Positions 11,621 to 44,541 of a stretch of 64,000 bases of DNA are shown here, in pieces. The position numbers and the translations under genes were made by a program. The stretch is from Oscillospiraceae bacterium. GTDB taxonomy: Bacteria > Bacillota > Clostridia > Oscillospirales > Butyricicoccaceae. The stretch's first letter is position 1. Each line of letters starts with the position of its first letter. The stretch is from contig SVKN01000002.1 in the NCBI GenBank assembly GCA_015068445.1, positions 1-64,000 on the forward strand, read 5' to 3'. The notes under the pieces were generated by a model. The model made no database searches, was not told where the DNA came from, and saw only the letters and a list, made by a program, of their open reading frames with translations.

Positions 11621-12166
11621 TTATTTGCCGAAGTAACGATCCAGCAGGCCCTTCAGAGCCTTGCCGTGACGGGCCTCGTCGCGGGCCATCTCGTGGACGG
11701 TGTCATGGATGGCGTCCAGACCCAGCTCCTTGGCCTTCTTGGCCAGAGCGGTCTTGCCGGCGGTGGCGCCGTTCTCGGCGTCGACGCGCATCTGCAGGTT
11801 CTTCTTGGTGGAGTCGGTGACGACCTCGCCCAGCAGCTCGGCGAACTTGGCGGCATGCTCGGCCTCCTCATAGGCGGCCTTCTCCCAGTACAGACCGATC
11901 TCGGGATAGCCCTCGCGGAACGCGACGCGCGCCATGGCCAGATACATACCAACCTCGCTGCACTCGCCCGTGAAGTTCTCTCTCAGGCCCTGGACGATCT
12001 CGGGATCAACGCCCTGCGCGACGCCGACCACATGCTCGGCAGCCCAGCTCATCTCCTCGTCCTGCTTTTTGAACTTGGAAGCGGGAGCCTTGCAGATGGG
12101 ACATGCCTCGGGGGGCTCGTTGCCTTCGTGGACGTAACCGCAGATGCTGCAAACATACTTACTCAT
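11621..12166 (-). CDS. Reverse rubrerythrin (NADH/rubredoxin-dependent peroxidase)
   Basis: Cytoplasmic peroxidase of anaerobes that reduces hydrogen peroxide at a non-haem diiron site, 181 residues. The order is reversed relative to classical rubrerythrin: the rubredoxin domain is first (Cys6, Cys9, Cys22, Cys25; CSICG and CPICK). The four-helix diiron domain follows, with ligand segments [22 protein letters not shown] and [12 protein letters not shown]. The ATG at 12166 has GGAGGAG upstream. Its start overlaps the end of the Rrf2 gene by eight bases, so regulator and enzyme are translationally coupled. Confidence 0.93.
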
Positions 12167-12596
12167 GGGAATCTCCTCCGTTTTCAATAATAGTGGGTTG
12201 CATAAAGTCGCTTACTTTTATTGCATAAAGCTTCTCGCGAAGCTCCTTGCTGATCTCGGAAAAAACCTGATGGAACCGGCAGCCGGTCTTGTCGATGACG
12301 CGGGTGCAGTCAAAATCGTCGCTGAGACAGTGGTTGATCTCCAGCGGGCCGTCGATGCACTCGATGACCGCGCCCAGGGAGACGTCCCGCGGCTCGACGG
12401 AAAGCTCGTAGCCGCCGCTGGAGCCCTTGTAGGAGGCGACGAGGCCGCCGGAGGCCAGCTTGCGCAGGATCTTCAGCGCGAAGCGCTGGGAGACGCCGGA
12501 GCGCTCGGAGATCTCGCGGGCGGGCAGCATCTTCCCCGCAGACGCGAGGACATACACGATGCGGACCGCATAATCGGCTTCATGTGTGATCCTCAA
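12159..12596 (-). CDS. Rrf2-family transcriptional regulator with a Cys triad
   Basis: Winged-helix repressor of the Rrf2/IscR/NsrR family, 145 residues. The family N-terminus ([18 protein letters not shown]), the HTH around residues 25-50 ([18 protein letters not shown]) and the wing (SSGGYEL) are all visible. Cys90, Cys97 and Cys106 are spaced like the Fe-S ligands of IscR/NsrR, so it may sense redox or iron through a cluster. The start is TTG at 12596, seven bases after GGAGGA; no closer ATG exists at the N-terminus. It heads the operon with reverse rubrerythrin and rubredoxin and probably controls it. Confidence 0.9.
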
Positions 12597-12654: not shown

Positions 12655-12686
12655 TCAAAAGCCATTGCTAACCTGTTAAATAATTT

Positions 12687-12712
12687 GCGGGGCAGGTTGA
12701 AGCCTGCCCCGC
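12687..12712. repeat. 26-bp palindrome, copy 1
   Basis: GCGGGGCAGG-TTGAAG-CCTGCCCCGC, a hairpin of ten perfect base pairs. An identical copy lies at 12940-12965, both preceded by ATTT. It has no strong U-tract, so terminator function is uncertain. Confidence 0.7.
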
Positions 12713-12771
12713 ATCAACTGTAACAAAGGCAGTTTTTATTTGAACGTGTCAGCGCTTCTTAACAAATCTGC

Positions 12772-12800
12772 TTTTTTGGCGGACATGCGCCGCCAAAAAA
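12772..12800. repeat. Inverted repeat, bidirectional terminator-like
   Basis: TTTTTTGGCGG (12772-12782) pairs with CCGCCAAAAAA (12790-12800) around a seven-base loop. It follows repeat copy A in the direction of the M14 gene's transcription. Confidence 0.55.
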
Positions 12801-12826
12801 ACACCTTAATAGCGAGCAAGGCGAGC

Positions 12827-12918
12827 GCTCGCGCCGACCAACTGAGGCGAAGCCGAAGACGATAAGCGCGAGTGACCTCGGAGGAAGGCCCAGCGGAGCG
12901 GTCTTCCTCCGAAGCGTG
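12827..12918 (-). repeat. 92-nt structured intergenic repeat, copy A
   Basis: Read on the minus strand, this matches 44408-44499 at 77 of 92 positions with no gap, and at 45 of 47 in the 3' half. It can form a perfect nine-pair hairpin (CGGAGGAAG / CTTCCTCCG) and a second one (CTCGCGC / GCGCGAG) closing a conserved loop that contains CTCAGTTGG. It lies in the 382-base spacer downstream of the M14 peptidase gene. No protein-coding gene is credible here. Confidence 0.75.
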
Positions 12919-12939
12919 TCGCTCTACCGACACGCATTT

Positions 12940-12965
12940 GCGGGGCAGGTTGAAGCCTGCCCCGC
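12940..12965. repeat. 26-bp palindrome, copy 2
   Basis: Identical to 12687-12712. The two copies bracket the segment holding repeat copy A and the inverted repeat at 12772-12800. It begins 13 bases after the M14 stop codon in the direction of transcription. Confidence 0.7.
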
Positions 12966-12978
12966 GACTTTATAGTGT

Positions 12979-15473
12979 TTAGCGATACAGCATGTTGAAC
13001 ACCAGCTTGAAGGTGCCGGTGGTCTGGGCGCGGTTCTGGGGACCGAAGCCGTACAGGACGACCTCGCCCTCGCCCTTCTTGCAGGTGACGACGCAGGCCT
13101 GGCCGGCGATGAGCTTCTCGCCCACCAGCAGACCGGAGCGCAGGACCTTCGTATCGGCGAAGCGCATGGCGACCTTGTAGTCGTCGGCGTGGAAGGTGTC
13201 GGTGATGGCGAAGACCGGGCCGTTCCAGTGGAAGATCAGGGTCTTGTCGGGCATGCCCCAGCAGACCTGCTGGGTCTTGTCGACGACGGTGCGCAGCGTG
13301 GAGCCGTGGTCGTTGAACTGCAGCGTGGGAACGCCGCCGACGATGTTCTTGACGCCGAGCTCCAGATACTTGATGGCGAAGTCGGAGGCGTAGTTGAAGG
13401 CCAGCACGCGGCCGCCCTTCTCGGCGAACTCCTTGATCTTCTTCGCGCCATCGGGGCCGATGCCGCTGCAGTATTCCTCAGGCTGCGGGCCGACCCACTG
13501 CATCATCATCTTCGTGCGCGGATCGTTGGCGTACTTGGGGCCGAGGATGAAGCCTTCGCCGTCGCTGGGCAGGATCAGGACGTCGAAGCCCTCCAGGCCG
13601 TTCTGGATATCCTTGTCGTGGACGGTGGTGTACTCGAAGCAGCTGTTCTCAAGGATCAGGCGGGTCCAGCCCTCGTCGGCGTTGCCGGTGTAGTAGCGCT
13701 GGTACATGGCGACCTTCAGCGGCTTGACCTCGGTCATCTTGTCGAAGGCCTTGTCCACCAGGCGATGGATCGTCGGGGCCTTCTCGAGGATCGCGGCGAT
13801 CTTGTCCTCGTCGCCCTCCACGTAGAAGTCATGCCACGGGCAGGTGTCGATGCGGTAGACCTTGAAGCCTTCCTTCAGCAGCAGGTTGACGGTCTTGAAG
13901 GCGCTGTTCTCCTTGGCGCTGATGACCACGTGGCTGCCCTTCTGGACGGCGGGCGCCCACGGGCACTCCATGCCCTGGACGATCTCGAAGGAGCCCTCGA
14001 ACTTCTGGCCCGCGGGATGGCGGCGACGTTCATGAACTCGGTGATGGTGTCGGTGGCGCAGTCATAGGCGGTGTAGGCGCCGGTGTTGTCCTTGGACCAC
14101 TGGTTGTCGGGATAATGGGTCTCGCCCAGCAGGTTCTTGATCAGGCCCATCTTGGGCTGTGCCAGGAACACGACGTAGGTGCCGGCGGGATAGGTGACGC
14201 AGTCGACGGTGAAGGGAGCGGTGGCCTTCTTGACCTCGATATTCTGCTGGCGCAGGATGCGGATCAGATGAACGACCTCGCCCTTATCGTGCTGATCGGC
14301 GGGGATGATGTACGCGAAATCGGGATCCTCGCAGCCGCGCTTCGTCTGGTTCAGGGCCTTCTGGGCCATGTTCTTCAGGATGGCCTCGCGGTTCTTGGCC
14401 ATGGTGTCCAGCAGGGCGTAGGCCGTGACGTACTGACGGTCAACGATGTCCTTCAGACGCCACCAGCCGCCGGGCCAGGGGCTGGGGAAGTTGGTCTGGG
14501 CCTCGTACTCCGGCTGGACCAGATCGCCGTCGCCCTTGAGCTGGGACGGATCGATGTATTTCGGGGTGGCCAGCTTGGCGGAGGCGGACTCGGTCAGCAT
14601 GCCGGGGATGTTGTGGCTGTTGACGATCCAGTGGTAGCCGTAATGGCCCCAGGACGGATACTGGGAGCCGGAGGTGCAGCCGTCCAGGCCCTCGGAATCA
14701 AGCTGATAGGCCATATTGGCGCCGTACCAGTTCAGTTCGCGCCAGACCAGGGGATCGACGTACTGACGCAGGGGGTTTTTGTACGGGGCGATGTAGATGC
14801 GCGCGCCGTAGCTGCCCATGTGATGGTGGTCCTGATAGGACTGGGGCATCCACTCGTGGAAGATGACCTCGCCCATGTAGCGGGACTCGATGATGTTCCA
14901 GGCCATGGCGTCGCGATTGTTGTCGTGGCCGGTGTATTTGTGGTACAGCATGGGGTAGTTGCTGCCCTCGAAGGGCGTGCCCTTGGTCTTGTAATACCAG
15001 TCGGTGACCATGATCTGGCCGTCGGGGTTGACGCAGGGCAGCATGACGAACACGACCTTGTCCAGGATGTTCAGCGTCGTTTCGTCGTTCTTCTGGCACA
15101 GGTCATAGGCCAGATTGACGGCCATCTGGGTGCCGCCGATCTCGGTGGCGTGCATGCTCATGCTCTGCACGGAGACGGCCTTGCCCTTCTTGACCAGGGC
15201 GTCGATCTCCTCCTGAGACAGGCCGCGGGGATCGGCCAGGGTCATGCTGGTCTGACGGATCTCTTCCAGATTGGCGTAGTTCTCAGGCGACGTGATGATC
15301 ACCTTGAGGAACGGATTGCCCATGGTGCTGGGGCCCATGTCGGAGACGTGGATGCGGTCGCTTTCCTTCTCAAGCTGATAGAAGTACTCTACGATCTTGT
15401 CCCACCGCGCCATTTCGCAGTCGTCGCCGGGGGTGAACCCGAAGAATTCCACAGGTTTTGTGATTTTGCTCAT
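12979..15473 (-). pseudogene. M14-family zinc carboxypeptidase, frameshifted
   Basis: Large metallocarboxypeptidase-like gene that would encode about 831 residues but is split by one missing base. The first part (15473 down to about 14020) holds the zinc motif HATE (His108, Glu111), NPDG (149-152), the substrate-binding NNRD in GHDNNRD (182-188) and a third His in IFHEW (His206). Near 14010-14020 the frame shifts. The second part continues without loss to the stop at 12979, starting GQKFEGSFEIVQG in the other frame. Homology runs smoothly across the break, so one base is absent from a CCNGCGGGCCAG-like stretch. The start at 15473 has GGAGG upstream. This may be a real pseudogene or a sequencing/assembly error. 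The remaining codons look intact, which favours a recent or artificial lesion. Confidence 0.8.
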
Positions 15474-44407: not shown

Positions 44408-44499
44408 CGCGCTTCGGGGGAAGATCGCTTGGCCGGGTCCTTCTCCGACTATACTCGCGCTTATCGCCTTCGGCTTCGCCTCAGTTGGTTGGCGCGAGC
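44408..44499 (+). repeat. 92-nt structured intergenic repeat, copy B
   Basis: Aligns without gaps to copy A (12827-12918, minus), 77 of 92 positions identical. It starts nine bases after the aldo/keto reductase stop and reads in the same direction as that gene, just as copy A does relative to its upstream gene. Two of the three changes in the first hairpin keep pairing through G-U. The stem CTCGCGC / GCGCGAG is unchanged. Confidence 0.75.
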
Positions 44500-44511: not shown

Positions 44512-44541
44512 AAAAAAGGCGGCCGCAAGGCCGCTTTTTTT
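44512..44541 (+). terminator. Terminator of the DUF3343-aldo/keto reductase operon
   Basis: GCGGCC-gcaa-GGCCGC flanked by A-run and seven T, 12 bases after repeat copy B. Confidence 0.85.

What the first reader, a model, noticed from the sequence alone, without database searches (positions are those of the whole stretch)
12827..12918. 92-nt structured repeat found twice behind unrelated genes
Copies at 12827-12918 (-) and 44408-44499 (+) match at 77 of 92 positions with no gap, and at 45 of 47 in the 3' half. Both lie downstream of a gene and read in its direction. Two hairpins are possible in both; in the first, two of three differences keep pairing through G-U. The most conserved part is a long-stem loop with CTTCGGCTTCGCCTCAGTTGG, which recalls a tRNA D-arm. 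It could be a 3'-UTR element for RNA stability or protein binding, or a small mobile repeat.
Basis: seen in the sequence. Interest (0 to 1): 0.65.

Follow-up and report, generated by a model that had tools for sequence, protein, structure and literature searches.

The report
Small mobile repeat duplicating transcription terminators
The 92-base repeat is the core of a roughly 220-base, protein-less jumping DNA element that has spread to about 40 or more places in this gut bacterium, in most cases right beside the stem-loop that ends a gene's transcript and with that stem-loop duplicated; it matters because the enzyme that picks out such stem-loops is unknown.

Summary
The 92 nt are part of a ~220-bp element (window 12713-12935, minus strand) made of four hairpins. 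The genome holds 22 matches to the 92 nt, plus a sister subfamily with the same hairpin order but different sequence (16 copies in the half of the genome read).

Most copies are flanked by two copies of the same host terminator hairpin. Own flanks share a direct repeat in 24 of 37 copies; mismatched flanks do so in 5 of 1332. The element's 5' end lies 0-5 nt after the terminator stem. Four sister species keep the same gene pair around the window's copy with no element; their spacers are 145-160 nt against 382 nt here. At tsf, six sister species likewise lack it. It is therefore a non-autonomous mobile element that inserts at intrinsic terminators and duplicates them.

Stems covary strongly, but G-T does not exceed A-C, so the structure looks DNA-level, not RNA-specific. 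No Rfam family matches. The closest known kind is Yersinia YPAL/RU-2. The mobilising enzyme was not found; an RT, Cas1 and a RAYT are present but none is linked to it. The 44408 copy is a decayed remnant. The 3'-UTR idea is at best secondary.

The parts
12936..12965 (-). 5' copy (in element orientation) of the target-site duplication = terminator hairpin GCGGGGCAGGCTTCAACCTGCCCCGCAAAT of the upstream peptidase gene
   Evidence: Perfect 30-bp direct repeat with 12683-12712; stable hairpin, DNA fold z = -5.85
12713..12935 (-). the inserted element, subfamily 1A, 223 bp between the duplicated terminators
   Evidence: absent from the orthologous spacer of four sister species
12914..12935 (-). hairpin 1, GCGTGTCG...CGACACGC, starts 4 nt after the terminator stem
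   Evidence: Alignment A3 and pair counts, 95.3% cells paired, 4 of 8 pairs with two-sided changes
12878..12913 (-). hairpin 2, TTCGGAGGAAGACC...GGCCTTCCTCCGA
   Evidence: 94.6% cells paired, 5 of 13 pairs with two-sided changes
   Evidence: Outer stem invariant in 17 copies; the three inner pairs tested are supported in only 34% of cells
12772..12807 (-). AAGGTG plus hairpin 4 with loop CRCATGT, the most widely shared part of the superfamily
   Evidence: Two overlapping pattern hits in the window against 0 in 100 shuffles; 19 contigs of uncultured Clostridia/Oscillospiraceae; reversed-pattern control 0 in 394 genomes
12683..12712 (-). 3' copy of the target-site duplication (same terminator hairpin)
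44408..44499 (+). decayed remnant of the element: hairpin 3 intact, hairpin 2 mispaired, hairpin 4 and the terminator duplication lost
   Evidence: 84% identical to copy 1 over 3-92; no direct repeat; fold no better than shuffles
44512..44541 (+). single intrinsic terminator after the remnant (AAAAAAGGCGGCCGCAAGGCCGCTTTTTTT)
   Evidence: Read directly
12159..12596 (-). Rrf2-family regulator gene downstream of the insertion; its pairing with the peptidase gene is conserved in sister species and marks the empty site
   Evidence: PF02082 E = 4.5e-29; synteny

Best explanation
It is a non-autonomous mobile DNA element of about 190-230 bp, GC-rich and without a gene. SHOWN: it exists in many copies in two subfamilies with the same order of hairpins; most full copies carry a direct repeat of 22-42 bp, in one case 70 bp, that contains the host's intrinsic terminator hairpin; the element's 5' end sits 0-5 nt after the terminator stem; sister species have the uninterrupted spacer with a single terminator. 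INFERRED: a trans-acting recombinase recognises the palindrome of an intrinsic terminator as a cruciform or single-strand hairpin, nicks each strand near the base of the stem, joins the element (itself recognised by its hairpins, with hairpin 4 the most conserved), and gap repair duplicates the whole terminator. Such sites would be safe havens, because the gene keeps a working terminator whichever way the element points. Any effect on mRNA ends would be a by-product.
For: 22 matches to the 92-mer in the own genome. Boundary analysis: terminator duplicated around 13 copies on first inspection. A scan for hairpin-bearing direct repeats, blind to the element, in 1.12 Mb recovers pairs clustered at 189-228 bp spacing and uncovered subfamily 1B. 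Own flanks match in 24/37 copies against 5/1332 for mismatched flanks. Stem end to element 5' start is 0-5 nt in 23 of the 24 tabulated copies (in two of these the stem was not resolved because the repeat is only 14 bp), and the repeat start is usually 0-5 nt before the stem. Empty sites: the window's peptidase-rrf2 spacer in four sister species is 145-160 nt with one terminator, against 382 nt here; tsf in all six sister species has no element, with the downstream gene also conserved in one. Insertion in both orientations relative to the gene. Covariation: 1B 22/47 pairs changed on both sides, 0/500 shuffles; 1A 14/43, 0/500. G-T 16 against A-C 22 in stems, p = 0.42, no sign of RNA wobble selection. 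The same hairpin 4 with flanking duplications in other Clostridia genomes: L059, L061, L065, L180.
Against: 13 of 37 copies show no direct repeat, among them four that start directly after a stop codon; decay or another route is assumed, not shown. No autonomous partner or mobilising enzyme was identified. In two related genomes the duplicated target is not a terminator but a gene end (L061) or a ribosome-binding-site region (L180), so hairpin targeting may be a preference, not a rule. Half of the genome was read in full, and it is a fragmented assembly. Structure recognition by the enzyme is inferred only from repeat boundaries.
Confidence: 0.86

Rival explanations
1. A structured RNA element (3'-UTR stabiliser, processing site or small RNA) kept behind genes by selection.
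For: Stable fold of the whole unit (RNA z = -8.9); covariation; the two window copies read in the direction of the upstream gene; four copies directly follow a stop codon.
Against: Orthologous sites in sister species are empty; often antisense to the gene; no excess of G-U over A-C in stems; no Rfam match; absent from most relatives.
Confidence: 0.07
2. A REP/BIME-like element mobilised by the genome's RAYT (REP-associated tyrosine transposase).
For: One RAYT homologue between recF- and gyrA-like genes: NF047646 E = 6.3e-18, below its curated cut-off; PDB 4er8 TnpArep E = 0.019. Weak Y1_Tnp hits of similar size in several element-bearing genomes.
Against: The RAYT flanks carry different GTAG-type hairpins and not this element; single-strand transposition by this enzyme class is not known to make 22-70-bp target duplications (own knowledge); seven element-bearing genomes in the same search show no hit.
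Confidence: 0.12
3. A SINE-like retroelement copied by a reverse transcriptase through target-primed reverse transcription.
For: Long, variable target duplications and a structured body; the own genome has one RT, a strong match to unknown group UG26 (565 bits), not found in sister species.
Against: Four other UG26-bearing genomes show at most one hairpin-bearing repeat pair of this type in ~465 kb, against 31 candidate pairs in 1.12 Mb here; no motif near the RT gene; no RNA wobble signal; no orientation preference.
Confidence: 0.1
4. Duplication without transposition: tandem terminators plus recombination or template switching between hairpins, with repeated spacers spread by gene conversion.
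For: Palindrome correction by template switching could keep stems perfectly paired without selection (own knowledge).
Against: Each site duplicates a different terminator while the insert is the same family; sister species carry single terminators.
Confidence: 0.03

Closest known systems
YPAL/RU-2 elements of Yersinia (described in PMC2229807, citing De Gregorio 2006)
   Same: Small (about 168 bp), no terminal inverted repeats but internal palindromes, variable target duplications, targets that span or adjoin dyad symmetry, empty sites in relatives.
   Different: YPAL duplications are 3-26 bp; here typically 22-42 bp and up to 70 bp, and the whole terminator hairpin is duplicated. No sign of shared sequence: the hairpin-4 pattern occurred only in Clostridia among GTDB genomes. 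Two subfamilies with covarying stems and a shared CRCATGT loop.
REP/REPIN/BIME elements with RAYT transposases (PMC2817692, PMC3116915)
   Same: High-copy, intergenic, hairpin-forming, non-autonomous; the genome does hold a RAYT.
   Different: ~220 bp with four unlike hairpins, large target duplications, and no association with the RAYT gene.
Bacterial MITEs such as BOX, RUP and SPRITE of S. pneumoniae (PMC10969869)
   Same: Non-coding, intergenic, structured; SPRITE resembles a terminator.
   Different: Here the terminator belongs to the host site and is duplicated; no terminal inverted repeat or short fixed TSD was found.
Group IIC introns
   Same: Insert just downstream of terminator hairpins (own knowledge; the papers listed were not read for this).
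   Different: No intron RT or catalytic core; no Rfam group II match; whole terminator duplicated here.
Cas1-Cas2 spacer integration / casposases
   Same: Analogy only (own knowledge): an integrase that attacks both edges of a palindromic ~30-bp target and duplicates it.
   Different: The own genome has one Cas1, but three sister species that carry the hairpin-4 motif have no Cas1 hit; insert is ~220 bp.

Membership tests
YPAL/RU-2 of Yersinia | sequence identity to the 168-bp YPAL repeat | tested here: inconclusive
   YPAL sequence was not in hand; the hairpin-4 pattern found only Clostridia records in a scan of genome contigs, which argues against
YPAL/RU-2 of Yersinia | target duplication of variable size spanning dyad symmetry | tested here: met
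YPAL/RU-2 of Yersinia | TSD 3-26 bp | tested here: not met
   Typically 22-42 bp, one of 70 bp
Classical MITE | terminal inverted repeats shared with an IS and a short fixed TSD | tested here: not met
   No consistent terminal inverted repeat on reading the ends; TSD variable; no larger coding relative found in 1.12 Mb
REP/RAYT | the element's hairpins flank the RAYT gene | tested here: not met
   RAYT flanks hold GTAG-type hairpins, not this element
REP/RAYT | RAYT present in genome | tested here: met
   NF047646 E = 6.3e-18, 65 bits against a curated cut-off of 80
Known Rfam RNA family | covariance-model match at gathering score | tested here: not met
   None in the window; across 13 loci the only hit over its gathering score is a T-box elsewhere in L018
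tRNA-like element | ARAGORN tRNA match | tested here: not met
Group II intron | catalytic RNA core and intron RT | tested here: not met
   No Rfam match; the only RT found is UG26

The most novel reading that the evidence does not exclude
The elements are substrates of an undescribed recombinase that recognises intrinsic terminators by hairpin or cruciform shape rather than by sequence, cuts at both bases of the stem and so duplicates the whole hairpin, working on a structured, gene-less element whose stems covary because they are read as DNA hairpins. The related elements in other Clostridia families would be one superfamily with this chemistry.
Probability: 0.35. Interest if true: 0.85.

Novelty: new variant of a known kind. 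Interest (0 to 1): 0.62.

Why it matters
Mobile elements that use intrinsic terminators as safe landing sites and duplicate them whole would explain repeated terminators in gut Clostridia and would point to a recombination enzyme that reads DNA shape. It also gives a clean natural system: dozens of insertions, two of them already checked against empty sites in sister species, two subfamilies with covarying hairpins, and a conserved loop (CRCATGT) as a handle for pulling out the partner protein.

Tried and rejected
Rfam search of the window and of 13 loci: no matching family. tRNA D-arm likeness: no tRNA. Peptide in hairpin 4 (MSAKK...): considered because AAGGAG and ATG occur, but the frame is cut at different points in many copies, so I dropped it (by eye). 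UG26 reverse transcriptase as mobiliser: other UG26 genomes lack the pattern. Cas1: present in the own genome but not detected in the sister species that carry the motif. RAYT: present, wrong flanking repeats. Autonomous long version between duplicated hairpins up to 8 kb: only ordinary genes or unrelated repeats. Viral contigs, plasmids and phages: no match. Literature searches with narrow term sets returned nothing; broader ones led to YPAL/RU-2.

Full report
Observation. The two copies are as described, 77 of 92 positions and 45 of 47 in the 3' half, with shuffled windows reaching at most 50 of 92. The genome (2.28 Mb in 103 contigs; the named genomes that share the motif are uncultured Clostridia/Oscillospiraceae MAGs, most of those whose title names a source from ruminant guts) holds 22 matches to the first copy.

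True extent. Aligning the copies with their flanks shows that the 92 nt are the middle of a longer unit: hairpin 1 (GCGTGTCGAC..CGACACGC), hairpin 2 (TTCGGATGAAGACC..GGTCTTCATCCGA), hairpin 3 (CTCGCGC..GCGCGAG), a GCTCGCTTTGCTCGC linker, AAGGAG and hairpin 4 (GTTTTTTGGCGG-CGCATGT-CCGCCAAAAAAC), and a less conserved tail. In the window this is 12713-12935 (-). The copy at 44408-44499 is a remnant without hairpin 4 and without flanking repeats, and it no longer folds better than shuffles.

Terminator duplication. The unit is flanked on both sides by the same terminator hairpin, different at each locus: for the window copy GCGGGGCAGGCTTCAACCTGCCCCGCAAAT at 12936-12965 and 12683-12712. A scan blind to the element, for direct repeats that contain a hairpin in 1.12 Mb of the genome, returned pairs clustered at a spacing of 189-228 bp. 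Those without the 1A core turned out to be a second subfamily, 1B, with the same order of hairpins but other sequences. Sixteen 1B copies and 21 1A copies entered the 37-copy flank test, in which own flanks share a direct repeat in 24 of 37 copies while 5 of 1332 mismatched flank pairs do. In the tabulated copies the element begins 0-5 nt after the end of the terminator stem, apart from one copy in which the detected repeat lies further upstream; the repeat usually starts 0-5 nt before the stem, with outliers at 10, 16 and 47 nt. The same scan in nine other genomes of the order, about 770 kb in all, found eight pairs, of which five lie in one repetitive gene stretch and only one resembles this pattern.

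Empty sites. The gene pair around the window copy (M14-type peptidase, Rrf2 regulator) is conserved in four sister species with spacers of 145-160 nt that hold one terminator-like hairpin and no element; here the spacer is 382 nt. Element plus one repeat is 253 nt, so the arithmetic fits. At tsf all six sister species lack the element after the gene, and one keeps the same downstream gene; here the tsf terminator is doubled around a 1B element that lies antisense to tsf. Orientation is mixed: same sense as the gene at the window copy and at the ftsH-like locus, antisense at tsf, the malY-like and the folC-like genes, and several between convergent genes.

Structure. In 15 copies of 1B, 22 of 47 pairs have changes on both sides and 94.7% of cells pair; no shuffle of 500 reaches this, and slid versions fall to 33-49%. 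In 17 copies of 1A, 14 of 43 pairs, also 0 of 500. These controls do not remove relatedness, but the double changes are spread over several stems and pair types. Departures from Watson-Crick pairing are as often A-C as G-T (22 against 16, p = 0.42), which does not favour selection as RNA on this strand; it fits hairpins in DNA, or palindrome correction by template switching.

Distribution. Hairpin 4 with its AAGG(A/T)G lead and CRCATGT loop occurs in 19 GTDB contigs, in 9 of 394 genomes of the order with none for the reversed pattern, and 1-5 times per genome elsewhere; in the window's genome the pattern hits 29 times (27 distinct places). Some of these other elements also sit between duplications: terminators in L059 and L065, a gene end in L061, a ribosome-binding-site region in L180. 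The family therefore seems wider than this genus, amplified here, with terminators a strong but not exclusive target.

Mobiliser. Not found. The genome has one reverse transcriptase of unknown group 26, one Cas1 and one RAYT homologue. UG26-bearing relatives lack the insertion pattern; Cas1 was not detected in the sister species that carry the motif; the RAYT is flanked by other repeats. No coding relative of the element was found, and none in viral contigs, plasmids or phages.

Comparison. The nearest described kind is the YPAL/RU-2 element of Yersinia: 168 bp, no terminal inverted repeats, internal palindromes, duplications of 3-26 bp, targets spanning or next to dyad symmetry, empty and filled sites (PMC2229807). 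The present family works like YPAL but differs in the size of the duplication, the whole-terminator target, the four-hairpin body and the shared loop; common descent is untested. I therefore call it a new variant of a known kind.

What is shown and what is inferred. Shown: multi-copy family, terminator duplication, empty orthologous sites, covarying hairpins. Inferred: that a trans-acting recombinase reads the terminator as a hairpin or cruciform and cuts at its base. Not shown: the enzyme, any present-day movement, any effect on expression.

Noticed in passing
window 12979-15473 (-): The M14-type peptidase gene is split into two overlapping ORFs (13875-15473 and 12979-13971) in different frames; in four sister species the frame is open across the fetched stretch. 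A frameshift in the genome or in the assembly.
   Followed up: partly
G000 contigs C20:18617-18835, C85:10640-10788, C19:1473-1724 and inside L019: A second, unrelated small repeat family (core AATAGATTTGCCGGAATGAATCCGGCAAATC) is also flanked by direct repeats, including one of 46 bp that covers a gene's 3' end with its stop codon; one copy is nested in a 1A element.
   Followed up: partly
G000:C99:12328-12817 and L266 1160-1340: GTAG/GTCGCAGGGGC-type palindromes in tandem, of the kind that also lie upstream of the RAYT gene; probably the RAYT's own REP family.
   Followed up: no
L265 1810-2150 (G011): A RAYT gene followed by several ATATCGA-tagged hairpins, a REP-like cluster different from the one in G000.
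   Followed up: no
G000:C91:3965-5170 (L165/L193): Stand-alone reverse transcriptase of unknown group 26 (PADLOC RT_UG26, 565 bits) next to a MATE-like gene; homologues at 44-63% identity in about a dozen genomes of the order.
   Followed up: partly
L018 2268-2517: T-box leader (Rfam RF00230, 98.3 bits) near one element copy.
   Followed up: no
G000:C84:9914-11490 and C16:14000 flank: A third repeat, AATTGACAATTGACAATTGCGG...ACCGATACCGCCTGACGGCG, follows several terminators.
   Followed up: no
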